DNA of 58,428 bases from Clostridiaceae bacterium (GCA_012839205.1 DUNT01000092.1:1-58428); one strand, 5' to 3'; counted from the stretch's first letter, positions 7,405 to 18,433 are shown. A program made the numbers and translations. Notes: a model not told the origin generated them from the sequence alone.

Positions 7405-8199
7405 ATGCTTAAAGTAGACCGGATATATAAAGTGTTTAATCCTGGAACAGTGAACCAAAAGATTGCCTTACGGGATGTAAGCATACAGATGGAAGAAGGA
7501 GATTTTGTCACCCTTATAGGCGGAAACGGAGCCGGAAAATCTACCCTGCTAAACTGCGTAGCTGGTGTATACGGAGTTGATAAAGGTACCATTAATATTG
7601 CTGGAACAGATGTGACTAAACTGCCTGAACACAAGCGGGCAACAATGCTGGGGCGGGTTTTTCAGAACCCGATGATGGGTACCGCCTCGGATATGATTCT
7701 TGAAGAAAATTTGGCTTTAGCTTTACGAAGGGGACAGCCCAGAGGTCTTAAATGGGGGATAACAAACAAGGAAAGGGAGACCTACCGGCAAATACTCTCC
7801 CATTTGGATCTGGGGCTTGAAGACAGACTACATACCAAAGTGGGGCTGCTGTCAGGAGGGCAAAGACAAGCCATCACTCTTTTAATGGCTACCATAAAAA
7901 AACCGAAACTTTTACTGCTGGATGAACACACAGCAGCCCTTGATCCAAAAACAGCTGAAAGAGTTTTATCTATGACAGATCAATTGATTAACGAAAATAA
8001 TTTAACTGTAATGATGGTGACCCACAATATGCGTGATGCCATAAAGTTTGGAAATCGATTATTAATGATGCATGATGGCCGAATAATACTTGATATCAAA
8101 GGCGATGAAAAAAAGAAACTCACAGTGGAGAGTCTTTTAAAACGATTTGGTGCAGCAAGTGGTGAGGAATTCACATATGACCGCACGCTCCTGTCATAA
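7405..8199 (+). CDS. ABC transporter ATP-binding protein (TrpZ-like)
   Basis: 264 residues. Walker A is IGGNGAGKSTLL near residue 40, the signature motif is LLSGGQRQAITLLMA, Walker B is LLLLDEHTAALDPKT and the switch histidine lies in VTHNMRDA. It energises import through the neighbouring permease. Start choice: GTG 7396 overlaps the GGAGGG box itself, while ATG 7405, eight bases after it and one base after the permease stop, is more plausible (start MLKVDRIYKVF). The gene ends one base before the 79-bp repeat, whose first part is this operon's terminator. Confidence 0.88.
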   Translation: MLKVDRIYKVFNPGTVNQKIALRDVSIQMEEGDFVTLIGGNGAGKSTLLNCVAGVYGVDKGTINIAGTDVTKLPEHKRATMLGRVFQNPMMGTASDMILEENLALALRRGQPRGLKWGITNKERETYRQILSHLDLGLEDRLHTKVGLLSGGQRQAITLLMATIKKPKLLLLDEHTAALDPKTAERVLSMTDQLINENNLTVMMVTHNMRDAIKFGNRLLMMHDGRIILDIKGDEKKKLTVESLLKRFGAASGEEFTYDRTLLS

Positions 8200-8212
8200 T
8201 AAAATTGTTAAA

Positions 8213-8246
8213 GAGGTTGTGATATCAGACGCAACCTCACTTTTTT
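8213..8246 (+). terminator. Intrinsic terminator of the ABC transporter operon (inside left repeat)
   Basis: GAGGTTGTG (8213-8221) pairs with CGCAACCTC (8230-8238) with one G-U pair and an 8-base loop, followed by ACTTTTTTAG. It lies 14 bases after the ATPase stop codon. Confidence 0.85.
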
Positions 8247-8279
8247 AGTCTGACTTATGGGCTTCAGGCTTTTTATCCA
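8245..8279 (-). pseudogene. Duplicated 3' end of the 46-residue basic protein gene
   Basis: Read on the minus strand this encodes the residues DKKPEAHKSD and the stop codon, identical to the end of the intact gene at 12244-12384. The match ends abruptly at 8279, five bases before the RAYT element. No start or ribosome site is present, so it is only the footprint of the duplication. Confidence 0.85.
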
Positions 8280-8283
8280 CTAG

Positions 8284-9428
8284 ATGGGGTCAGGCTTTTG
8301 ATTTTTTGATTCTTTATCTTCAGTTCTTTAGTATCTATAGTATCTTTATGATAAAAAAGAAGGGGATTGATTCCATGTGTTGAATATTCAGTAATAATGA
8401 TGTTACTATGAGGTGATCTGATGGCACGAAAACCTAGAATTGAATATCCCGGAGCCTTCTACCATGTTATGTGTAGAGGAAATAATGGAGAACATATACT
8501 TCATAATGATGAAGATAAAAAATTTTACCTGTATCTTATTCAAAAGTATAAGGAAAGGTATTGTTTCAGGATATTTGCTTACTGTATCATGGATAACCAT
8601 GTTCATATGCTAATACAAACAGGAGATGTCCCACTATCAAAGATAATGCAGGGCATACAACAAAGTTTCACCCAAGGATACAATTCAAAATACTGCAGGA
8701 CTGGTCATGTTTTCCAACAGAGGTATAAAGCAATACTAGTTGACGGAGATTCTTACCTATTACAACTGATAAAATATATACACTATAATCCAGTAGAAGC
8801 TTGGATGGAAGAAATTAATTATAAGTGGAGCAGCCATCAAGATTACATAAAGATTAATAAGGAATCTGTGGTTGAGGTGGAGTATGTAATTAAAATGCTT
8901 GGTAAAGATTTAAGGAGCGGGTTGAAAGAATACATAAGGTTTATGAACCTAGACCAGAGAGAGTTTAATATCAATGAGTTTTTATTTGACAAAGTGAAGC
9001 CGCATGCAACAATAGAGGAGTTTAAGGGGTTGCAGACAGAGGTTTCTCGCGTGGCCATAAACCTAGAGGATATAATAAAATATGTTTGTGAGAAAACAAG
9101 TCTGACCATTGAAGAAATAACTAGAAAAACGAAATTAAAGAAGATTGTAACAGCCAGGAAGGCGATAATAGTCCTCAGTGATAAGTACAATGAAATTACA
9201 AATAGGGACCTATCTAAAATACTAAATATATCCTCGTCTGTTATTTCACGAATCAAGGGTGAGAAAATAGATACTGGGACATCAGAGTTAATTGATGAAG
9301 TTATTGGAGAATTGATGGTGTCCGGTGAAACATCAAACCAGTTACACTAGAACTACTATGCAGGTAAAAGAACCAATTTAATATTACCTGAAAAGCCAAG
9401 AATTAGAAAGTCAAAAGCCTGACCCCAT
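8284..9428. mobile_element. RAYT (IS200/Y1-type) element with 18-bp perfect terminal inverted repeats
   Basis: ATGGGGTCAGGCTTTTGA (8284-8301) is repeated in perfect inverse orientation at 9411-9428. The similarity continues inward imperfectly for about 40 bases. The repeats enclose a single Y1-transposase gene. The GGGGTCAGG end sequence is one I associate with many chromosomal RAYT elements. The left end lies five bases inside the left 79-bp island repeat, so the transposon occupies the island edge. Subterminal features are a TAGTATC direct repeat (about 8330) and a CAGGTAA/TTACCTG hairpin (9361-9390). Confidence 0.8.
8421..9350 (+). CDS. REP-associated tyrosine transposase (Y1_Tnp) with C-terminal DnaA-like HTH
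   Basis: 309 residues. Residues 1-125 form the Y1 HUH endonuclease domain: the opening MARKPRIEYPGAFYHVMCRGNN, the HUH motif DNHVHML (His60 and His62), and the catalytic tyrosine in KYIHYNPVEA (Tyr119). Residues about 210-300 form a helical DNA-binding domain resembling DnaA domain IV (VCEKTSLTIEEITRKTK, later RDLSKILNISSSVISRI), a common extension in this transposase group. These enzymes nick and join single strands at stem-loop ends. The GAGGTGATCTG before ATG is a good ribosome site. All catalytic residues are present, so it could be active. Confidence 0.9.
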   Translation: MARKPRIEYPGAFYHVMCRGNNGEHILHNDEDKKFYLYLIQKYKERYCFRIFAYCIMDNHVHMLIQTGDVPLSKIMQGIQQSFTQGYNSKYCRTGHVFQQRYKAILVDGDSYLLQLIKYIHYNPVEAWMEEINYKWSSHQDYIKINKESVVEVEYVIKMLGKDLRSGLKEYIRFMNLDQREFNINEFLFDKVKPHATIEEFKGLQTEVSRVAINLEDIIKYVCEKTSLTIEEITRKTKLKKIVTARKAIIVLSDKYNEITNRDLSKILNISSSVISRIKGEKIDTGTSELIDEVIGELMVSGETSNQLH

Positions 9429-9468
9429 ATACATATATGATATACTATCCTAAAGGAGGCGATTTACT

Positions 9469-9801
9469 ATGGATGCCGAGACAATACAAATGGTGATAGA
9501 TTTTAGAGATGCTAGAGATTGGGCACAATTCCACAATCCAAAGGATCTCGCAATATCAATATCTCTTGAGGCTGCAGAACTCCTGGAAGTATTTCAATGG
9601 AGCGGTACTGATTGCAAATGCTTTGATAAGATTGAGAGAATTAAAGAAGAATTGGCAGACGTACTTAATTACTGTATTTTAATGGCAGATGCATGTAATC
9701 TGGATATGAATGAGATAATCAGAGAAAAAGTAATTAAAAATAATGAAAAATATCCGGTGAATAAAGCAAAGGGCATTTCTGATAAGTATAACGAGTTATA
9801 A
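9469..9801 (+). CDS. MazG-like nucleotide pyrophosphohydrolase
   Basis: 110 residues, a single-domain all-alpha NTP pyrophosphatase of the MazG/DCTPP1 type. The metal-binding motifs are visible as E34-x-x-E37 in SLEAAELLEVFQW and E61-x-x-D64 in KEELADVLNYC. Such enzymes hydrolyse (d)NTPs to monophosphates and pyrophosphate, clearing damaged nucleotides or depleting dNTP pools. It sits 40 bases upstream of the nuclease-helicase-protease gene, and both lie between the 79-bp repeats, so they probably act together. AAGGAGG is 8 bases before ATG. A CTGACC -35-like sequence in the right end of the RAYT element with TATACT at 9441-9446 may drive the pair. Confidence 0.88.
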   Translation: MDAETIQMVIDFRDARDWAQFHNPKDLAISISLEAAELLEVFQWSGTDCKCFDKIERIKEELADVLNYCILMADACNLDMNEIIREKVIKNNEKYPVNKAKGISDKYNEL

Positions 9802-9841
9802 GATACGATTTAAATCGAACTATAAGGTTGGGAGATATACA

Positions 9842-12196
9842 ATGATTGTTTATGAGGGAACAAAGCTATCTTTTCAAAGAGATGTCATGAACGGTACAAT
9901 TGCAAGAAATATAGATGAACTATTTAAAAGACTTTATATACCAAGAGGACAAATTGCAGAATTTCGTTCATGGGAAAATTCTCTTCCAAGAATGGGGTTG
10001 ATTTTAGGTGATTCAAGAATTCCGGATCAATCTCAAGTAGCCATTGAATATCAAATTCCTCTTACCTCAAAGAGAGTAGATTTTATGATTGGTGGTAGAG
10101 ATGGCGAAAACGAAAATATTGTTGTAATTGAACTTAAACAATGGGAAAAATGCACTGCGACAAGCCGAGAAAGCGTTGTAAAGGCATACACAGGTGGTGC
10201 ATTAAGAGATGTAGTTCACCCGTCTCAGCAGGTATACTCATATGCAAAACTAATTGAGAATTTTAATGAGTCTGTTAGAGAGAATAATATAAGTCTGATA
10301 CCATGTGCATATTTGCATAACTATAAAGAGACTTATAAGAATCAGATATTCCATCATAAATACAATGATGTAATTAAAGAAGCACCGGTTTTTCTCCAGG
10401 AAGATTCTGAAGAGCTTCAAGACTTTATAGCTAAATTTATCAAAGAGCCCTCGAATAAAAAACTTTTCGATATAATTGAAAATGGAAAACTGAAACCATC
10501 AAAATCATTACAGGATTCTGTTGGTGCCATTCTAGATGGCAAACAGGAATTTATTATGATTGAAGAGCAGCAGGTTGCCTATGCGACAATTTTAAAACTA
10601 GTGCAGAATACAATATCAAATGACGAAAAACATACAATCATTGTTCAAGGAGGCCCAGGAACCGGTAAATCAGTTATTGCAATCAATTTGCTTGCAAAAA
10701 TCCTTAATAACGGTTTTAGCTGTTTTTATGTTACTAAAACTAGTGCTCCAAGGACAACATTTGCCAAGTCTCTTGTACGAGGTAAGCATACATTGAGTTA
10801 TCTGAGAGGGCTATTTAAAAGTTCCGGGACATTTTATGATACGCCTTCAAACACTTTCGATTGCCTTCTTGTTGATGAGGCGCACAGGCTTAATGCAAAA
10901 TCGGGGTTATTTGGTAATTTCGGCGAAAACCAAATCAAAGAAATTATTAATGCATGTAAAATCAGTGTTTTCTTTATTGACGAGGACCAGATTATTTCCA
11001 CTAGGGACATTGGTTCTGTAAAAGAAATTAAAAAATGGGCGAAAAAATTATGTAGTAAAGTACATTACGGTGATAATCTAAAACTGCTATCACAGTTTAG
11101 ATGCAATGGTTCTGATGGTTATCTTGCATTTCTTGATGATGTGCTTGAAATAAGACACACAGCAAATTATGACTGGTTTGATTTTGACTATGATATCCAA
11201 TTTTTTGATGAGCCTTCAAAAATGAAAGAAGCATTACGAAAAACTAATATTAACAATAAATCACGCATGATTGCAGGTTATTGTTATCCTTGGAACAGCA
11301 AAAATGATAAGACGCAGTATGACATAGAACTTGAAGGCGGTTTTAAAGCTCAATGGAACTTTACCACTGATCAATGGGCAACTGATCCAGATTCATTTGA
11401 ACAGGTAGGCTGTATTCATTCGGCTCAAGGATTAGAATTTGATTATGTTGGAATAATTATCGGCACAGATATGAGATATGAAAATGGTAAAGTGATAACC
11501 GATTATACAAGGCGTGATAAGAATGATGCCACTATAAAGGGCCTCAGAACGGGGAACAATGAAGAACTAGCAGATAGGATTATCAGGAATACATATAAAA
11601 CACTCCTGTCAAGAGGACAGAAGGGATGTTATGTATACTGTGAAGACAAGGCCCTTGGAGAATACTTGGCTACAAGATGCGATAGAGCAAAGGAAAATAC
11701 CGCCAAACAAAAAACGTACAAGATAGTGGCATCAGATACGGAACCTAAAAAAATCAAGTATGTCAAGGTAAGATTTTATGAAGCTGCGACAGCAGCAGGC
11801 CCGAGTGAAGATTTTGGAGAAGAGAGATTCGAAGAAATTGACTTACCTGAAACAGATGTGTTACCAGGTACCGATTTTGTATTAAAAATTAGTGGTCGGA
11901 GCATGGAGCCCACGATTATGGATGGTGATTTAGTATGCATTAATTGGAAGGCTCGAAAAAACATCAGAAATGGTGACATTGGTATATTCAATGTAGATGG
12001 AGCTCCATACTGTAAGCATTTTTATCAGGATAAGGGTGGTAACATATGGTTAATTTCTGCTAATGAAGATTATAAGGATACAAATGTATTTATTCCATAT
12101 GACAGTGATATAAGATTTCAATGCAGAGGAAAGGTGCTTGGGCACATAAGTAAATTACCCGATTACTTTAATGTCTGGCAAAAAGATAACCCTTAA
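9842..12196 (+). CDS. PD-(D/E)XK nuclease-like / DUF2075 helicase / S24 (LexA-like) protease-like fusion
   Basis: 784 residues in three parts. Residues about 60-200 look like a PD-(D/E)XK nuclease core (KRVDFMIGG with Asp80; VVIELKQW with Glu97 and Lys99). Residues about 235-650 are a DUF2075 superfamily 1-type helicase: Walker A GGPGTGKS (270-277), Walker B LLVDEAH, FFIDEDQI, and the late motif IHSAQGLEFDYVGIIIG. Residues about 655-784 are an S24/LexA-type domain with Ser687 in SGRSMEPT and Lys725 in PYCKHF, 38 apart as in LexA, so the catalytic dyad is intact. There is no LexA DNA-binding domain. Inference: a damage- or phage-responsive nucleic-acid-processing machine whose S24 module may cleave itself. 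It ends 3 bases before the right 79-bp repeat, which supplies its terminator. Confidence 0.85.
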   Translation: MIVYEGTKLSFQRDVMNGTIARNIDELFKRLYIPRGQIAEFRSWENSLPRMGLILGDSRIPDQSQVAIEYQIPLTSKRVDFMIGGRDGENENIVVIELKQWEKCTATSRESVVKAYTGGALRDVVHPSQQVYSYAKLIENFNESVRENNISLIPCAYLHNYKETYKNQIFHHKYNDVIKEAPVFLQEDSEELQDFIAKFIKEPSNKKLFDIIENGKLKPSKSLQDSVGAILDGKQEFIMIEEQQVAYATILKLVQNTISNDEKHTIIVQGGPGTGKSVIAINLLAKILNNGFSCFYVTKTSAPRTTFAKSLVRGKHTLSYLRGLFKSSGTFYDTPSNTFDCLLVDEAHRLNAKSGLFGNFGENQIKEIINACKISVFFIDEDQIISTRDIGSVKEIKKWAKKLCSKVHYGDNLKLLSQFRCNGSDGYLAFLDDVLEIRHTANYDWFDFDYDIQFFDEPSKMKEALRKTNINNKSRMIAGYCYPWNSKNDKTQYDIELEGGFKAQWNFTTDQWATDPDSFEQVGCIHSAQGLEFDYVGIIIGTDMRYENGKVITDYTRRDKNDATIKGLRTGNNEELADRIIRNTYKTLLSRGQKGCYVYCEDKALGEYLATRCDRAKENTAKQKTYKIVASDTEPKKIKYVKVRFYEAATAAGPSEDFGEERFEEIDLPETDVLPGTDFVLKISGRSMEPTIMDGDLVCINWKARKNIRNGDIGIFNVDGAPYCKHFYQDKGGNIWLISANEDYKDTNVFIPYDSDIRFQCRGKVLGHISKLPDYFNVWQKDNP

Positions 12197-12199
12197 TTA

Positions 12200-12278
12200 A
12201 AAATTGTTAAAGAGGTTGTGATATCAGATGCAACCTCACTTTTTTAGTCTGACTTATGGGCTTCAGGCTTTTTATCCA
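12200..12278. repeat. Right 79-bp direct repeat of the 4-kb island
   Basis: Same 79-bp sequence as 8201-8279 with one substitution. It includes the hairpin GAGGTTG...CAACCTC with a T tract (12212-12245), which terminates the island operon, and the 3' end of the intact small gene on the minus strand. Because the gene is whole on this side, this is the junction that restored the target gene. Confidence 0.9.
12212..12245 (+). terminator. Intrinsic terminator after the helicase fusion gene (inside right repeat)
   Basis: GAGGTTG (12212-12218) pairs with CAACCTC (12231-12237), followed by ACTTTTTTAG. The one base that differs from the left copy lies at the loop-closing edge of the stem. It lies 16 bases after the stop codon of the nuclease-helicase-protease gene. 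Read from the minus strand it can also lie at the end of the convergent small gene. Confidence 0.75.
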
Positions 12279-12384
12279 TATTTTCTTTTATAGGTTCCAG
12301 ATTATTGCCGATTTGGTCGTTGTAAAAGGCAGGGTCGCCATGAACCGGTTTATTAAGCTTTGGATTTACTTTCTTTTTGCCCAT
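12244..12384 (-). CDS. Small basic hypothetical protein (46 aa)
   Basis: MGKKKVNPKLNKPVHGDPAF begins a hydrophilic, lysine-rich protein of 46 residues ending DKKPEAHKSD. I do not recognise it. It has no membrane segment and is probably disordered. The ATG at 12384 is supported by an AAAGGAGGAG site on the minus strand; longer in-frame starts upstream lack one. Its last 11 codons and stop lie in the 79-bp repeat and occur a second time at 8245-8279. It therefore appears to be the integration target of the adjacent island, as often happens with genes whose 3' end is used as an attachment site. Confidence 0.65.
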   Translation of the reverse strand: MGKKKVNPKLNKPVHGDPAFYNDQIGNNLEPIKENMDKKPEAHKSD

Positions 12385-12665: not shown

Positions 12666-13856
12666 ATGATGAAGATTTTAAACTGGCACCGATTCGTTTT
12701 TAGAATGCTTAAGAGAATTCTTAAACCCTACCTGGTAAAAAAACTAAACTATTCTTTTGAAGAAGTAAAACCCAAACACAAACCGTATATTATTTTAGCA
12801 AATCATAATACCGACTACGATCCATTTTTAGTCGGCTTAGCTTTTCCCGATCAAATGTATTATGTGGCAAGTGAGCATATATTCAGATGGGGCTTTATAA
12901 GCAAGCTCATCAATTTCCTTGTTGCCCCCATTCCAAGAGTAAAAGCAATAACAGAAATACAGACAGCTATTAACATATTAAAAAGATTAAGAGCAGGAGC
13001 AAATGTCTGTATGTTTGCTGAAGGCAATCGTTCCTTTAGCGGTGAGACAGGTGAAGTTCATCCTGCAACGGGCAAATTAATTAAGAAAAGCGGTGTTTCA
13101 CTTATCACTTTCCGTCTGGATGGAGGGTATTTTACAAGTCCCCGCTGGTCCAAAACACTGCGAAAGGGTAAAATGAAGGGGCGAATGATAAAGGAATACT
13201 CCCCTGAAGAAATAAAGTCCATGACAGTTGATGAAGTCTTTTCGGCTATTAAGAAAGATTTATATGTTGATGCCTATGAGGAGCAGGAAAAGAATCCTGT
13301 TGAATATAAAGGCTATAAGTTGGCCGAGAATCTTGAAACAGCCCTTTATTTATGTCCAAAATGTGATAATACAGCAACACTAAAAAGCGAAGGAGACAGG
13401 CTTTTTTGTGCCTGCGGATTAGATCTGAAATATGATACATATGGATATTTATCGTCAAACGACGACGAAGAACCTCCCTTTAAGACAGTCCTGGAATGGT
13501 GCAGATTTCAGGACACTTGGCTTAAACAGGAAATTGAAAAAATTAAAAGTCTGCCGCCTGATGAACTAATATACTCTGATGAAGGTCAAACACTATGGGA
13601 GGCTAACCGTGGCAAAAACAAGCTGATAGCTAAAGGAACCCTGCTTTGCTATAATAATAGAATAGTTTTTGTTAGTGAGGATAATCATAAATATATCTAT
13701 AAATTTAATGATTTGTCTGACTTAAATATTATTGGGCAGATGGACATTGCCTTTGCCACAAATGACCGGCAGGCATATGAGATTAAGTCAAGCTACCCCA
13801 GAAGTGCTCTGAAATACAGGGAGCTGTTTAAATATTTAAAAACTCACAATAGTTAG
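12666..13856 (+). CDS. 1-acylglycerol-3-phosphate acyltransferase-like (PlsC domain) with zinc-ribbon extension
   Basis: 396 residues. The PlsC domain occupies about 35-215: ILANHNTDYDPF gives the catalytic H-x4-D, and FAEGNRSFSG the substrate-binding EGxRS-like motif. It would acylate lysophosphatidate or a related lysophospholipid at the inner membrane leaflet. Beyond the domain, LYLCPKCDNTATLKSEGDRL and FCACGLDL supply four cysteines in two C-x-C/C-x-x-C knuckles, a zinc ribbon, followed by about 130 residues including a pleckstrin-like stretch (GTLLCYNNRIVFVS). That tail is unusual for the enzyme (normally about 240 residues). ATG ATG at the start follows GCGAGGAAA. The GltS-like gene begins 18 bases later, so an operon is likely. 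Confidence 0.82.
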   Translation: MMKILNWHRFVFRMLKRILKPYLVKKLNYSFEEVKPKHKPYIILANHNTDYDPFLVGLAFPDQMYYVASEHIFRWGFISKLINFLVAPIPRVKAITEIQTAINILKRLRAGANVCMFAEGNRSFSGETGEVHPATGKLIKKSGVSLITFRLDGGYFTSPRWSKTLRKGKMKGRMIKEYSPEEIKSMTVDEVFSAIKKDLYVDAYEEQEKNPVEYKGYKLAENLETALYLCPKCDNTATLKSEGDRLFCACGLDLKYDTYGYLSSNDDEEPPFKTVLEWCRFQDTWLKQEIEKIKSLPPDELIYSDEGQTLWEANRGKNKLIAKGTLLCYNNRIVFVSEDNHKYIYKFNDLSDLNIIGQMDIAFATNDRQAYEIKSSYPRSALKYRELFKYLKTHNS

Positions 13857-13874: not shown

Positions 13875-15263
13875 GTGGATTTTTCAGCAGCTAATACTGG
13901 TTTATGGAATTTTATTATTCAGTTTGGTTTAATTGCCGGACTTCTGCTTTTTGCTAATATACTGTCCCGAAAGATAATGTTTATAAGAAAAGCCATGATT
14001 CCTACGGCTGTATTGGGCGGTTTTATAGCATTATTTTTAAGGGAATTGAATCTAATTCCTATGGACGGGGACTTCCTGGAAAAGGTTACTTACCATGCTA
14101 TAGGAATTGGTTTCATTGCTCTTTCTCTTCGGATTCCAGCCAAATACAGCGAGAAAGAAAAGAGTGATTTAACAGCGCTTAAAAGCGGTGCATTAATTGT
14201 AAGTACATATTTGGTTCAAGGTATTTTAGGTCTGATAATATCAATTGGACTTGCATATACAATAATGCCCGATTTCTTTAAAGCCGCCGGGATACTTCTG
14301 CCCATGGGATATGGCCAGGGGCCGGGACAGGCCAATAATGTCGGCTCGTCATATGAACAGCTGGGTTTTGTGGGAGGGCAGTCCTTTGGGTTGTCAATTG
14401 CTGCGGCAGGATTTATATGTGCTTGTGTTGTAGGAGTTTTTTATATTAATGTAGTAAACAGGCAAAGAAAAGTTAAAGTGCAGGAGGCAGCCTATGTTTC
14501 CGGGTCGGTTACTGTTGAAGATTTTCAGGATAAGAATGAGATTCCCATATCCCAATCGGTAGACAGATTTTCGGTGCAGTTTGCACTGGTTCTGTTAATA
14601 TACCTGGCCACATATTTAGTATCTCTTGGGATAACAAGTCTTTTAGCTGAGTTTGCTCCGGGTCTGTCAAGGACGTTGTCACCATTAATTTGGGGATTTA
14701 ACTTTATCACCGGATCATTATTGGCAACAGGCTGTCGACTGGGCTTTGATGCTTTGACAAAAGCTAAGGTAATGACTCGCCAATACCCAAATAATTATTT
14801 ATTATCCAGGATATCCGGCTTGTCATTCGATTTTATGACTATCGCCGGAATAGCGTCAATAGAATTCAAAGAATTGAAAGGGCTATGGGTTCCTTTCATT
14901 ATAATTGCTGTTCTGGGCGGAATAGTAACATTTTATTATCTTAAGTGGTTGTGCAAGAAAATATATCCCGGATATGAGTACGAAGGAATGGTATCCATGT
15001 ACGGAATGCTTACAGGGACAATAAGCTCAGGGGTAGTATTGCTTAGGGAAGTAGATCCTGAATTCAAAACTCCCGCTGCCAATAATTTGTTAACAGGCAG
15101 CAGCTTTGCAATTCTTCTGGGAGCACCCATGTTGATATTTATTGGTTTGGCTCCGGAATCCGATATGCTGCTGTTTGTTACACTGGGATTACTTGTTGCA
15201 TATCTGGTTCCGCTTCTGGCTATAATGCTTAAGGCACACAGAAAAAAACAAGTAAAATCCTAA
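13875..15263 (+). CDS. gltS: Sodium/glutamate symporter family protein (GltS-like)
   Basis: 462 residues with about ten transmembrane helices arranged in two halves. GYGQGPGQANNVGSSYEQLG corresponds to the glycine-rich re-entrant loop of GltS carriers, and VSMYGMLTGTISSGVVLLRE to the matching loop in the second half. It probably takes up glutamate, or a related acidic substrate, with sodium. The glutamate dehydrogenase lies 3.3 kb away. Starts with GTG after AAGGAG. Its TAA overlaps the TAG of the convergent PPDK-like gene by two bases, with no terminator between them. Confidence 0.8.
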   Translation: MDFSAANTGLWNFIIQFGLIAGLLLFANILSRKIMFIRKAMIPTAVLGGFIALFLRELNLIPMDGDFLEKVTYHAIGIGFIALSLRIPAKYSEKEKSDLTALKSGALIVSTYLVQGILGLIISIGLAYTIMPDFFKAAGILLPMGYGQGPGQANNVGSSYEQLGFVGGQSFGLSIAAAGFICACVVGVFYINVVNRQRKVKVQEAAYVSGSVTVEDFQDKNEIPISQSVDRFSVQFALVLLIYLATYLVSLGITSLLAEFAPGLSRTLSPLIWGFNFITGSLLATGCRLGFDALTKAKVMTRQYPNNYLLSRISGLSFDFMTIAGIASIEFKELKGLWVPFIIIAVLGGIVTFYYLKWLCKKIYPGYEYEGMVSMYGMLTGTISSGVVLLREVDPEFKTPAANNLLTGSSFAILLGAPMLIFIGLAPESDMLLFVTLGLLVAYLVPLLAIMLKAHRKKQVKS

Positions 15264-18200
15264 GAGATTTTTAAGGGTATAGCCGGATCTGCCGGGTGAT
15301 TAATCTTAATTGCAAAGGAATCCTTATTATTGATGTCCTCGTCTGTAATGATGTGGACATCAAGTATTTTATCCATTTTATAGCCGGTATTCATATAGTT
15401 TATCTCGGCAAGACTCGTACTCCAGCCGTCCAGCCAACTTTCAAGCTCTTTAAGCTGCGTATCATTTCCCTCAAAGTGAATGATTATATCAATATCGCTG
15501 CCAGGCCCTGCTGTGCCTGAACCTGTACTTCCAAATAGGTAGAAACCTTTAACTCCAAATCGGCTTGAATCAATTCTTGCAGCCAATTGTTCGGCCATAT
15601 GATACCGCCATCTCCATGCCTTGTCATCACCGGTATAATCCTCGTATTCAACAACTCTTCGCTTATGGGAAAGTTTAATTTTATGAGGGGTAAGAAATCC
15701 AATAGCCTGAGACAAATCGGCATTCATACATATACTCATATTATATCCGTCAGAGACAGAAGGGATATCTATCACTTTTACAACATCTTCAAATCGTTCG
15801 TATTCCGGGAATATTGTCTTTAGAGTATTCCTGGATTTATTAAGATATTTCTCATTAAAAATAATTCCTTCATTATCGGGGTATAAGGGCAGCACCCGGA
15901 TATTAGCTTCAACAAGATCCTGGAAGAAGTGTGTGCCAAAAGATAATTCAGGCATATATCCGCTTTGCTTTTTGGCGACTTCAATTAAAGCCGCAGTATT
16001 GCAGATGTCAGCATATGTGACTGATACGCCTAATTTTATATCCCCCCGGCTTCCCCAACGGCCCGGGCCTATAAGGATAAACTGGCGTTTAGGAAGAAAG
16101 GAGTTTAACTTACCAATTATTTTACCTACTGTTTTTAAATCTTCCAGCTGGGATAATTCACTGTAATGCTCCGGGTTAACATATACAATATGAGATATAT
16201 TTTGAATAAGCCCATTTGAAATATAACGATTGGCAGTAAAAACAATATCTTTAGAGAGCACGTCCTGAGGAATAGGGGCGGGAGCAGTATCATCCCTGAT
16301 GCTTTGCGGTCTGCACTGTAGAAGATATAAATCCTTCCCGTCAGATGCAAATTCAATATCAACGGCATACCCGAGTTTTTCCTGTAAAGTCCTGATAACG
16401 GTGTTTATTTGTGTAATAAAGTGTGAATCACTTATTATGCCATCAAATGTTACAATAAGTTCATCCTTCTCAAAATCTATCTCAAAGAAATTTGGTTTTC
16501 TGATATAATCATATTCCATAACAGAAACAATTTTATTTATATTATCCATTTTATTCCCGTATTCTTTAAGCAGCTTTGATATTTCAATAGTTTCAAAAGT
16601 ATTATTCTCTAAATTGATAACATCAATCTTTTTAGGTGAATACCTCTTAATTTCATCAGGTACAATATTTACCCTGATACCAGGTTGCTGGGGTGATACA
16701 AGGATTGGAAAATCATCGGTCAAGCGGTCAACAGCCCGGGTACCCAAACCGGGAACCATCCTTAACAAACCGTCTTCCCGTTTTATTCTGGGTGACCATC
16801 TGTATTCGTTATTACTGAAAGCAACACCGGAAAACAGAGGGAAGAAGTATTTTCCGATCTTGGTACCAACAACTTGCTGAATCATTATGCCCATTTCTTC
16901 GTGAACATCCAGAAGATTTCTTTCTGCTCTGTATTGGATAGGATCGGGGCCGAAGACAGAGGCATACACCTCAATAATGGCATCCTGGAGGGCATTTAAT
17001 CTCTCTTGCTTACTACCCTGGTTGGCTAAAAACAGGCTCTTATATTTGCCTGAAAAAGAGGCACCAGTTTGATCCTCCAGCACACTGGAGCTTCTGACTA
17101 TAATTGGCGTATCTCCTAAGTCGTCCAAAGCCACTGAAAGATTATTAATAATTTCAGGCGGCAGGCTGAAACTCTTCATTAATTGTATGATATTTCTGTA
17201 TTCTAAACGTATCTCCTGAATATCTCTGTATTTTTGCTCATTCAGCTCTTCTAAATCGTTATAATGAAGAAATTTGGTTATAGTGTCTGTTGTAATATAC
17301 CAGGTCTTGGGAACTTTAATGGAATTAAGCTGAGGTAGGTTGTCTTTTTCTTTTTTTAGTATTTTATTTGCTAAGAATAGGCCGGTTCCCTTTCCTCCGA
17401 TTCGCCCCCGGCTGTCTGAGGGATAGATTATCCTGTTGATAATATCATTAAAATCGTTGTAATTTAAATACTGTGCAGCAATATTTATAAAGTCAGGTTT
17501 ATCGGATAAAAAGTTTTTTATTAAACCTACGGTAAGCCACCGGCCTTTAGGAGAAAACAGCAGTTCATCGTTCTTTGAAGATTTTTGGAATTTTCTGAGA
17601 GCCTCAATTATATTATGAAGTGACGGAGAGTTACTGCCAATTACTTTGATGAGGGAATAGGCATTCTCCTCCTGCATCCATCTTTTGATTTGGTTTTTCA
17701 GCTCCTGGGCGCCAATATATTTTTTAGCAACATTAAAAGCATTTTCACAAATTAATGTTATATCCCCCATTGGCTCTGCTGCCGCAGGATAATTTGCATA
17801 TCCGCCATCATCTGTTAAGTTATTTGTCGAACAATTAAAAAGTTCAGATGCCTCGTTTACACCCAGAATAAGAAGGTAGTTTGTAAGCTTCCTGCATATG
17901 TGAAGAAGCATACTATGATCGGTATACTTAAGAAATTCTACAAGAAATTCCCATTCCTTTACCTCATTCTCAGAGGCAGCCGGATTTGTTTTTAAATCTT
18001 CCCATCCGCTCATTACGGATTTCATCTGCCTATAAACAAGCATTTGACCTATTCTGTCTGCGACAGACTTTATCAGTTTCTTTTCTTTAAAAAGAAAATA
18101 ACCTTCATCGGTTTTTGGAACTTCCTTAATATATACAACTTCTATGTTACCTGCAATATTTCCATCTGCTTTGATATCAGATGTTTCAGAGAGGGGAGAG

Positions 18201-18433
18201 GATATAAATCCGGGGCTCTGATAACTATGGTTTTTGTATATTATTCTTGCCCGGCATAGTTCAGGGAATCTCCAGCCAGAAGGTAATACTCTGATGATTT
18301 CTTTAAGAATCTCAGGTATGGATAATTGATGGTTTTCGAGAATCTCATCAACCATATACAGGCAGTTTAACTCTTTTTCCCGTTCCTTCAGGATATCAAG
18401 TAAATTATTGGACCCAATGTTTTCATTACCCAT
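15260..18433 (-). CDS. PEP/pyruvate-binding (PPDK N-terminal) ATP-grasp protein fused to a nucleotidyltransferase
   Basis: 1057 residues. N-terminus to about 140: a GAF-like sensor segment (ELNCLYMVDEIL, then LPSGWRFPELCRARI). About 335-720: the PPDK/PEP-synthase ATP-grasp domain, seen in GGKGTGLFLANKIL, IIVRSSSVLEDQTGASFSGK and VPGLGTRAVDRLTDDFP. About 780-850: the IGPGRWGSRGDIKLG block that accompanies this domain in uncharacterised proteins. The C-terminal 94 residues form a Pol-beta-type nucleotidyltransferase: GS (968-969), D980-x-D982, and D1025, all catalytic carboxylates present. There is no phosphohistidine swivel domain and no PEP-binding barrel, so it is not a complete PEP synthase. 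It may transfer phosphate or nucleotides to a protein or RNA. Minus strand, with its own leader (18437-18488). Confidence 0.75.
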   Translation of the reverse strand: MGNENIGSNNLLDILKEREKELNCLYMVDEILENHQLSIPEILKEIIRVLPSGWRFPELCRARIIYKNHSYQSPGFISSPLSETSDIKADGNIAGNIEVVYIKEVPKTDEGYFLFKEKKLIKSVADRIGQMLVYRQMKSVMSGWEDLKTNPAASENEVKEWEFLVEFLKYTDHSMLLHICRKLTNYLLILGVNEASELFNCSTNNLTDDGGYANYPAAAEPMGDITLICENAFNVAKKYIGAQELKNQIKRWMQEENAYSLIKVIGSNSPSLHNIIEALRKFQKSSKNDELLFSPKGRWLTVGLIKNFLSDKPDFINIAAQYLNYNDFNDIINRIIYPSDSRGRIGGKGTGLFLANKILKKEKDNLPQLNSIKVPKTWYITTDTITKFLHYNDLEELNEQKYRDIQEIRLEYRNIIQLMKSFSLPPEIINNLSVALDDLGDTPIIVRSSSVLEDQTGASFSGKYKSLFLANQGSKQERLNALQDAIIEVYASVFGPDPIQYRAERNLLDVHEEMGIMIQQVVGTKIGKYFFPLFSGVAFSNNEYRWSPRIKREDGLLRMVPGLGTRAVDRLTDDFPILVSPQQPGIRVNIVPDEIKRYSPKKIDVINLENNTFETIEISKLLKEYGNKMDNINKIVSVMEYDYIRKPNFFEIDFEKDELIVTFDGIISDSHFITQINTVIRTLQEKLGYAVDIEFASDGKDLYLLQCRPQSIRDDTAPAPIPQDVLSKDIVFTANRYISNGLIQNISHIVYVNPEHYSELSQLEDLKTVGKIIGKLNSFLPKRQFILIGPGRWGSRGDIKLGVSVTYADICNTAALIEVAKKQSGYMPELSFGTHFFQDLVEANIRVLPLYPDNEGIIFNEKYLNKSRNTLKTIFPEYERFEDVVKVIDIPSVSDGYNMSICMNADLSQAIGFLTPHKIKLSHKRRVVEYEDYTGDDKAWRWRYHMAEQLAARIDSSRFGVKGFYLFGSTGSGTAGPGSDIDIIIHFEGNDTQLKELESWLDGWSTSLAEINYMNTGYKMDKILDVHIITDEDINNKDSFAIKINHPADPAIPLKIS

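What the first reader, a model, noticed from the sequence alone, without database searches (positions are those of the whole stretch)
8201..12278. A 4-kb island bounded by 79-bp direct repeats carrying a dNTPase and a nuclease-helicase-LexA-protease fusion
Seen: 8201-8279 and 12200-12278 are identical at 78 of 79 positions. The right copy belongs to the intact 46-residue gene (12244-12384), while the left copy is only its 3' end plus the shared terminator. The interior holds a RAYT transposon, a MazG-like pyrophosphohydrolase and a 784-residue multidomain protein; no integrase is present. Known: islands often integrate into gene 3' ends and restore them. Inference: a mobile cargo module that lost or never had its own recombinase, or moves in trans. 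Nucleotide-pool control next to a nuclease/helicase strongly resembles antiphage logic.
Basis: partly seen in the sequence, partly recalled or inferred. Interest (0 to 1): 0.85.

Follow-up and report, generated by a model that had tools for sequence, protein, structure and literature searches.

The report
Self-cleaving nuclease-helicase on a mobile island
A 4-kb piece of foreign DNA inserted into a Clostridia chromosome carries a two-gene, probably anti-virus module in which a DNA-cutting, DNA-unwinding enzyme has been fused to the self-cutting 'SOS alarm' domain of a phage repressor, a fusion that has arisen at least three separate times and would, if it works as predicted, give bacteria a damage-triggered switch on a defence enzyme.

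Summary
The island is real. The 79-bp repeats (78/79) occur only twice in the genome, and a congener has the same flanking genes with one uninterrupted copy and no island. The interior holds a RAYT element, probably a passenger, and a two-gene operon: a MazG-like NTP pyrophosphohydrolase and a 784-aa protein (PD-(D/E)XK-type nuclease + SLFN-g3/DUF2075 helicase + S24 protease). MazG adjoins this nuclease-helicase, on the same strand, in 61 of 80 informative loci across bacteria and archaea, often beside defence genes, so the pair is the unit. The S24 tail is the exception: most relatives end where it begins. It occurs in a dozen scattered loci, in three sequence types (phage-CI-like here, LexA-like, and a third); one clade is rejected (p-AU 5e-5). 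The tail has the A-G site and Ser/Lys dyad at LexA-like spacing; the genome has RecA, LexA and SOS boxes (none at this operon). Best reading: a phage-defence module whose nuclease-helicase is switched post-translationally by RecA-stimulated self-cleavage, leaving the form most relatives have. Defence, RecA dependence and the direction of the switch are inferred. The insertion mechanism is unknown; RAYT is unlikely.

The parts
8201..8279 (.). Left 79-bp direct repeat: terminator + last ~10 codons of the 46-codon gene (truncated duplicate)
12200..12278 (.). Right 79-bp direct repeat, continuous with the intact 46-codon gene
8285..9427 (+). RAYT element with perfect 17-bp inverted ends TGGGGTCAGGCTTTTGA (8285-8301 / 9411-9427); single copy in genome; probable passenger
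8421..9350 (+). REP-associated tyrosine transposase (Y1_Tnp) with DnaA_C-like C-terminus
9469..9801 (+). MazG-like NTP pyrophosphohydrolase, 110 aa; conserved acidic residues E34, E37, E61, D64 present
   Evidence: PF12643 E 6.6e-22; alignment A2
9842..12196 (+). 784-aa nuclease-helicase-S24 fusion protein
9842..10441 (+). N-terminal nuclease-like domain (aa ~1-200), PD-(D/E)XK-type motif D80 ... E97-x-K99
   Evidence: E69, D80, E97, K99 invariant in A1 and A3; motif assignment by inference
10628..11647 (+). SF1-type helicase domain (aa 263-602): Walker A 270-277, DEAH 345-348, SQFRC 417-421, GCIH..QGLEFD 523-534
   Evidence: PF09848 E 5e-90; Foldseek RecD2, RecD, SLFN11, Dna2
11705..11830 (+). 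Linker of low model confidence (aa 622-663) that holds the predicted scissile bond
11795..11800 (+). Predicted self-cleavage site A652-G653
   Evidence: alignment with other S24 tails; spacing G-S 34, S-K 38
11786..12091 (+). Peptidase S24 (LexA/CI-type) domain, aa 649-750; catalytic Ser687 (11900-11902) and Lys725 (12014-12016)
   Evidence: PF00717 E 2e-21; LexA sequence and fold matches; phage CI-like repressors closest
12244..12384 (-). Intact 46-codon gene at the insertion site (ancestral flank)
   Evidence: homologues in G019, G008, G012; remnant in G001
7414..8199 (+). Left flanking gene: ABC transporter ATPase (syntenic in G001)
12666..13856 (+). Right flanking gene: acyltransferase (syntenic in G001)

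Best explanation
The island is a horizontally acquired defence cargo whose functional unit is the operon MazG + nuclease-helicase-S24. Proposed working: (1) the nuclease-helicase acts on phage or other foreign replicating DNA while MazG hydrolyses (d)NTPs and starves replication; (2) the C-terminal S24 domain, related to phage CI-type repressors, holds the enzyme in a restrained state; (3) when infection or damage creates RecA-ssDNA filaments, the S24 domain cuts itself at A652-G653 and releases a ~650-residue nuclease-helicase, which is the form in which most relatives exist without any S24 tail. Shown by sequence: domains, conserved motifs, gene pair, partnership, insertion, repeated fusion, presence of RecA and LexA. 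Inferred: defence activity, substrate, RecA dependence, and that cleavage activates rather than disables.
For: Empty site: in G001 the ABC-acyltransferase gap holds one uninterrupted relative of the repeat plus the flank beyond it (117-nt alignment, score 76 vs 24.8 +/- 3.6 in shuffles, 0/500; island edges do not align). Cargo absent from the 13 other genus genomes searched. MazG adjacent in 61/80 loci, always same strand, 47 upstream/14 downstream, 10/10 of the S24 loci counted; none in 225 kb of control DNA. Nuclease residues E69, D80, E97, K99 and key helicase residues invariant in 36 sequences. S24: Pfam, LexA matches, Foldseek LexA TM(target) 0.74-0.77; Ser/Lys conserved in all 11 aligned tails, A/C-G site in 10 of 11; G-S spacing 34, S-K spacing 38, which from memory is close to E. 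coli LexA (G85, S119, K156). Repeated acquisition: this tail is closest to phage repressors (81 and 69 bits vs at most 37 for any other fused tail), L140/L153/L156 are closest to LexA, L121 plus the Omnitrophota group form a third type; one clade rejected, p-AU 5.4e-5. The genome has RecA and LexA with SOS boxes at both, none upstream of this operon, so any SOS link would be post-translational. Near vs distant genes: 166 vs 18 PADLOC models matched among 124 proteins each, including PbeA, type IV restriction and methyltransferases.
Against: No experiment. PADLOC finds only partial matches (Nhi, AbiO, PDC-S41). MazG is missing next to 19 of 80 relatives. Some S24 proteins cleave without RecA control (IrvR, PMC7101444). 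Cleavage might disable the enzyme (as for LexA and CI) or the domain might serve only for dimerisation. The linker and domain arrangement are of low confidence in the model (pTM 0.67). PADLOC model counts are not gene counts; many models overlap.
Confidence: 0.5

Rival explanations
1. Same module, opposite sign: the nuclease-helicase is active in resting cells as a standing barrier to foreign DNA and S24 self-cleavage switches it off (or leads to its degradation) during DNA damage, so that repair intermediates are not attacked.
For: In LexA and phage CI, cleavage inactivates (established knowledge). A nuclease acting on ssDNA-containing forks would be dangerous during SOS. The S24 site is intact.
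Against: Cleavage at A652 removes nothing that most relatives possess: they end near residue 620-650, so the cut product should be a complete enzyme.
Confidence: 0.25
2. The module is a DNA-repair or genome-maintenance system (nuclease-helicase plus nucleotide pool sanitising) regulated by damage, carried on islands but not chiefly antiviral.
For: MazG of M. tuberculosis is a house-cleaning NTP pyrophosphohydrolase (PMC10014863 abstract); the nearest folds include RecD2 and Dna2; a damage-sensing S24 domain fits repair.
Against: Patchy distribution (26 of 391 Clostridia genomes; 1 of 14 in the genus), neighbours rich in restriction and other defence genes, several broken copies, copies on plasmids and in phage records.
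Confidence: 0.2
3. Origin of the repeats: site-specific integration by a recombinase acting in trans or since lost, so the 79 bp are attL/attR at a gene 3' end/terminator (a CIME-like decayed or trans-mobilised element).
For: Target is a terminator with dyad symmetry overlapping a gene end; the same module in L141 (Omnitrophota) lies between 45-bp copies of a tRNA 3' end, and in L142 between 56-bp, 82% repeats; integrases occur among neighbours of relatives.
Against: No integrase in or beside the island; the 79 bp match nothing else in the genome nor in the relatives searched, and two exact fragments are absent from viral contigs.
Confidence: 0.5
4. Origin of the repeats: one-off illegitimate capture of DNA at a staggered break (fill-in of 79-nt overhangs or template switching).
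For: Precise duplication without a recombinase; no second copy anywhere.
Against: 79 nt is long for such events, and the cargo is a self-contained module, as expected of a mobile unit.
Confidence: 0.35
5. The RAYT transposase moved the whole island and made the repeats.
For: RAYT lies 5 bp inside the left repeat; the repeat shares TCAGGCTTTT with the RAYT end.
Against: Relatives with the same ends (GGGGTCAGGCTT, ~1 kb) carry only the RAYT gene between them and show no long direct repeats bounding them; Y1 HUH transposases are not known to make long target duplications (established knowledge); the RAYT right end lies at 9427, upstream of MazG.
Confidence: 0.08
6. Assembly artefact of a draft genome.
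For: 133-contig draft; 79 bp is of the order of an assembler word length.
Against: The copies differ at one base, both outer flanks are syntenic with G001, and the interior ORFs are intact.
Confidence: 0.04

Closest known systems
Nhi (nuclease-helicase immunity, Staphylococcus epidermidis SERP2475) and AbiO
   Same: Related helicase domain (PADLOC Nhi E 8e-17, AbiO E 3e-15); Nhi is a single nuclease-helicase enzyme (PMC11811056) reported to be activated by phage SSB (PMC10732053).
   Different: Only the helicase part aligns (Nhi model 190-428 of 470); here the N-terminal part is not matched, a MazG partner is conserved, and an S24 protease is fused.
PADLOC candidate PDC-S41
   Same: Matches two stretches, the best over residues 40-285, E 2e-16.
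   Different: Only partial similarity; a candidate without a mechanism given in the library; no S24 in the best matched part.
MazG-domain systems predicted as defence by DefensePredictor (PMC13092281)
   Same: A MazG NTP pyrophosphohydrolase domain was predicted there to be defensive.
   Different: Not experimentally validated there; the text names neither DUF2075 nor S24; which partner gene is meant could not be seen.
LexA / phage CI / UmuD self-cleaving proteins (peptidase S24)
   Same: A/C-G scissile bond, Ser-Lys dyad, LexA fold, spacing; closest sequences are CI-type repressors of Bacillota phages.
   Different: The N-terminal partner is a nuclease-helicase instead of a DNA-binding domain.
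Bacterial and human Schlafens (SLFN group 3 helicase)
   Same: PF09848 helicase domain; Foldseek finds SLFN11 and SLFN14.
   Different: No Schlafen RNase core (no such Pfam match).
CIMEs / integrative islands at gene 3' ends
   Same: Cargo between direct repeats at a gene end, empty site in a relative, no integrase of its own.
   Different: No partner element or recombinase known for this site.

Membership tests
SLFN-g3/DUF2075 helicase family | PF09848 above curated cut-off with Walker A/B motifs | tested here: met
   302.8 bits vs 24; motifs present
MazG-like pyrophosphohydrolases | PF12643 above cut-off with conserved acidic residues | tested here: met
   78 bits vs 27; E34, E37, E61 and D64 invariant in A2
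MazG-like pyrophosphohydrolases | Hydrolysis of (d)NTPs | not testable with these tools
   needs an assay
S24 self-cleaving proteases (LexA/CI/UmuD) | Domain fold and Ser-Lys dyad | tested here: met
   PF00717 76 bits vs 23.3; LexA TM(target) 0.74-0.77; S687, K725
S24 self-cleaving proteases (LexA/CI/UmuD) | A-G or C-G scissile bond at the usual distance | tested here: met
   A652-G653, 34 residues before Ser
S24 self-cleaving proteases (LexA/CI/UmuD) | RecA-stimulated autocleavage | not testable with these tools
   RecA is present in the genome
Nhi | Similarity over the whole protein | tested here: not met
   Nhi model matched only at 190-428 of 470
Nhi | Single-gene system | tested here: not met
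   MazG adjacent in 61/80 relatives and here
Schlafen (SLFN core RNase) | SLFN core / AlbA_2 domain | tested here: not met
   no such Pfam match
Anti-phage defence system | Association with defence genes beyond background | tested here: met
   166 vs 18 PADLOC models matched in 124 near vs 124 distant proteins; models overlap, so this is indicative
Anti-phage defence system | Protection against phage | not testable with these tools
   needs plaque assays
Integrative island / CIME | Direct repeats and an empty site in a relative | tested here: met
Integrative island / CIME | Own or trans-acting recombinase using these repeats | tested here: inconclusive
   none in the island; no other use of the site found
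RAYT-mobilised element | Whole island bounded by RAYT inverted ends | tested here: not met
   right RAYT end at 9427, before MazG

The most novel reading that the evidence does not exclude
A previously undescribed two-gene prokaryotic immune system (MazG + PD-(D/E)XK/SLFN-g3 helicase) in which evolution has at least three times attached a LexA/CI-type autoprotease to the same end of the effector, making a zymogen that is unlocked directly by RecA filaments: a post-translational coupling of the SOS signal to an immune nuclease, here built from the sensor domain of a phage repressor.
Probability: 0.35. Interest if true: 0.85.

Novelty: new variant of a known kind. Interest (0 to 1): 0.64.

Why it matters
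Nuclease-helicase defences and LexA-type switches are each well known, but I found no paper in the held library that describes DUF2075 together with MazG, or an S24 domain fused to a defence effector. If the fusion is a RecA-triggered switch, it gives a testable answer to how a cell keeps a potentially self-destructive nuclease quiet until infection damages DNA, and it shows a phage repressor's induction sensor turned against phage. The widespread MazG partnership in bacteria and archaea also points to an undescribed nucleotide-depletion-linked defence pair.

Tried and rejected
RAYT as the source of the repeats: related elements in seven loci were inspected; those with both inverted ends show inverted ends but no long direct repeats bounding the element (L175 has a further copy of one end upstream and L176 further copies of the ends); rejected. 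The 79 bp as a dispersed repeat: two copies only; rejected. SOS-box control of the operon: no GAAC-N4-GTTC box upstream, although lexA and recA have them. A separate S24 gene beside tail-less relatives: an HMM of the tails found none in those loci. Att-like copies in viral contigs: none. A general rule that this module is flanked by repeats: only L141 (tRNA end) and L142 are convincing among about 90 loci. Solved structures by sequence for the whole protein: only weak P-loop hits. GC content of the cargo is only slightly below the flanks (about 0.35 vs 0.37-0.43), so composition is weak evidence. The held collections have one genome per species, so same-species empty sites could not be sought.

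Full report
WHAT IS THERE. Positions 8201-8279 and 12200-12278 are identical at 78 of 79 positions and are the outstanding direct repeat of the region. The 79 bp occur nowhere else in the 2.31-Mb genome. They hold a terminator hairpin and the last ~10 codons of a 46-codon gene whose intact copy lies to the right (12244-12384, minus strand). That gene is real: homologues of 49-61% identity occur in other members of the family.

EMPTY SITE. In G001, a member of the same genus, the same ABC transporter ATPase and acyltransferase genes flank a 389-bp gap. A single uninterrupted stretch of that gap aligns over 117 nt with the repeat AND with the sequence beyond it (score 76; dinucleotide shuffles 24.8 +/- 3.6, 0 of 500 reach it), and the flank alone also aligns (36 vs 20.6 +/- 2.9, 0 of 500). 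The two inner edges of the island do not align. The nuclease-helicase was not found in the 13 other genomes of the genus searched. So 3.9 kb of DNA entered a single-copy site and 79 bp were duplicated. In G001 the small gene is a remnant.

HOW IT ENTERED. Unknown. The island has no integrase. RAYT is unlikely: its inverted ends enclose only the RAYT gene (8285-9427), and related elements have the same ends without long bounding direct repeats. Two relatives hint at integrative islands: L141 (Omnitrophota) lies between 45-bp copies of a tRNA 3' end, and L142 is bounded by 56-bp, 82% repeats; most of about 90 loci show none. A recombinase acting in trans or lost, or a one-off capture at a staggered break, both remain possible. 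An assembly artefact is unlikely, because the copies differ at one base and both flanks are syntenic with G001.

THE MODULE. The MazG-like protein (9469-9801) and the 784-aa protein (9842-12196) lie 40 bp apart on one strand. In 80 loci (near-copies removed) with at least 450 bp on both sides, MazG adjoins the nuclease-helicase in 61, always on the same strand, 47 times upstream and 14 times downstream; none was found in 225 kb of control DNA taken elsewhere in genomes that carry the module. The order has changed but the partnership has persisted across Bacillota, Bacteroidota, Spirochaetota, Omnitrophota, Nomurabacteria and archaea. Nuclease-type residues E69, D80, E97, K99 and key helicase residues are invariant in 36 sequences. 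Foldseek of the model (mean pLDDT 78, pTM 0.67) finds RecD2, RecD, SLFN11/14, Dna2 and LexA.

DEFENCE CONTEXT. 124 genes within about 6 kb of the module in 14 Clostridia loci matched 166 PADLOC models at E <= 1e-15 (including PbeA, type IV restriction, type II methyltransferases); 124 genes from distant places of largely the same genomes matched 18. Models overlap, so this is a strong indication rather than a count of genes. The module is patchy (26 of 391 Clostridia genomes), is found in plasmid and phage records, and is broken in several genomes. DefensePredictor also predicted a MazG domain as defensive, without validation (PMC13092281).

THE S24 TAIL. Most relatives end at residue ~620-650 of this protein; the S24 domain (649-750) follows a linker of low model confidence. 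I found S24 tails in 12 loci besides the window (L076, L121, L135, its near-copy L139, L136, L140-L143, L150, L153, L156). The Ser and Lys are conserved in all 11 aligned tails and an A-G or C-G bond in 10. Here the bond is A652-G653, 34 residues before Ser687, which lies 38 before Lys725. The tails are of three types: the window's is nearest to phage CI-type repressors (81 and 69 bits, against at most 37 to any other fused tail); L140, L153 and L156 are nearest to one another and then to LexA; L121 and the Omnitrophota-type group resemble one another (130-216 bits) and, for L143, no phage protein. On the tree of the nuclease-helicase part the tailed proteins need 6-7 changes and one clade is rejected (p-AU 5.4e-5). 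The window's nearest relatives (75-77% identical) lack the tail. L121 carries the Omnitrophota-type tail on a Bacteroidota-type core, which suggests tail exchange.

MECHANISM. The genome has RecA and LexA, with GAAC-N4-GTTC boxes at both, but no such box upstream of this operon, so a link to SOS would be post-translational. Cleavage at A652-G653 would leave a protein of the same make-up as the tail-less relatives. I therefore favour activation by cleavage (0.5 overall for the defence + switch model), with inactivation as the main rival (0.25). That the tail is removable is a sequence inference; RecA dependence is inferred from the family, and at least one S24 protein departs from it (PMC7101444). 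The rivals about function (0.25, 0.2) compete with the best explanation; the rivals about the origin of the repeats (0.5, 0.35, 0.08, 0.04) are a separate question.

MEMBERSHIP. It is a member of PF09848, PF12643 and S24 by tested features. It is not Nhi: only the helicase part matches and there is a conserved second gene. It works like a nuclease-helicase defence with a LexA/CI-type switch; that is a statement about likely working, not membership.

LIMITS. The near/distant comparison used Clostridia only. The literature search was limited to open papers; a described system under another name cannot be excluded.

Noticed in passing
window 15260-18433 (-): 1057-aa protein joining a PEP-synthase/PPDK-N domain (PF01326, 344-722) to a C-terminal nucleotidyltransferase domain (PF01909, 956-1006), an unusual combination.
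   Followed up: partly
L121:1032-3413: Bacteroidaceae nuclease-helicase with an S24 tail of the Omnitrophota type (about 49% identical) while its nearest core relative L129 shows none: likely tail exchange.
   Followed up: partly
L141:5123-5167 and about 12146-12190: 45-bp repeats of a tRNA 3' end (91%) bound a stretch that holds MazG and the S24-tailed nuclease-helicase: an apparent tRNA-site island.
   Followed up: partly
L142:5580-5634 and 8722-8777: 56-bp, 82% identical repeats closely flank the MazG/nuclease-helicase-S24 pair.
   Followed up: partly
L064 (G271), L096, L114, L157: Two diverged nuclease-helicase copies lie close together in one locus.
   Followed up: no
L073, L074, L075, L076, L133: Nuclease-helicase genes broken into pieces by frame changes or stops, in Clostridia and one Spirochaetales MAG: frequent decay or draft errors.
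   Followed up: no
window 12244-12384 (-); L030, L031, L032: Lysine-rich 46-codon gene conserved in several members of the family, with no Pfam match.
   Followed up: no
L198 (G000:C39) and L196 (G000:C20): Two intact LexA boxes (AGAACGTATGTTCT, GAACAGGTGTTC) and one near-match upstream of lexA, and GAACATTTGTTC by recA, which suggest this organism's SOS box.
   Followed up: yes
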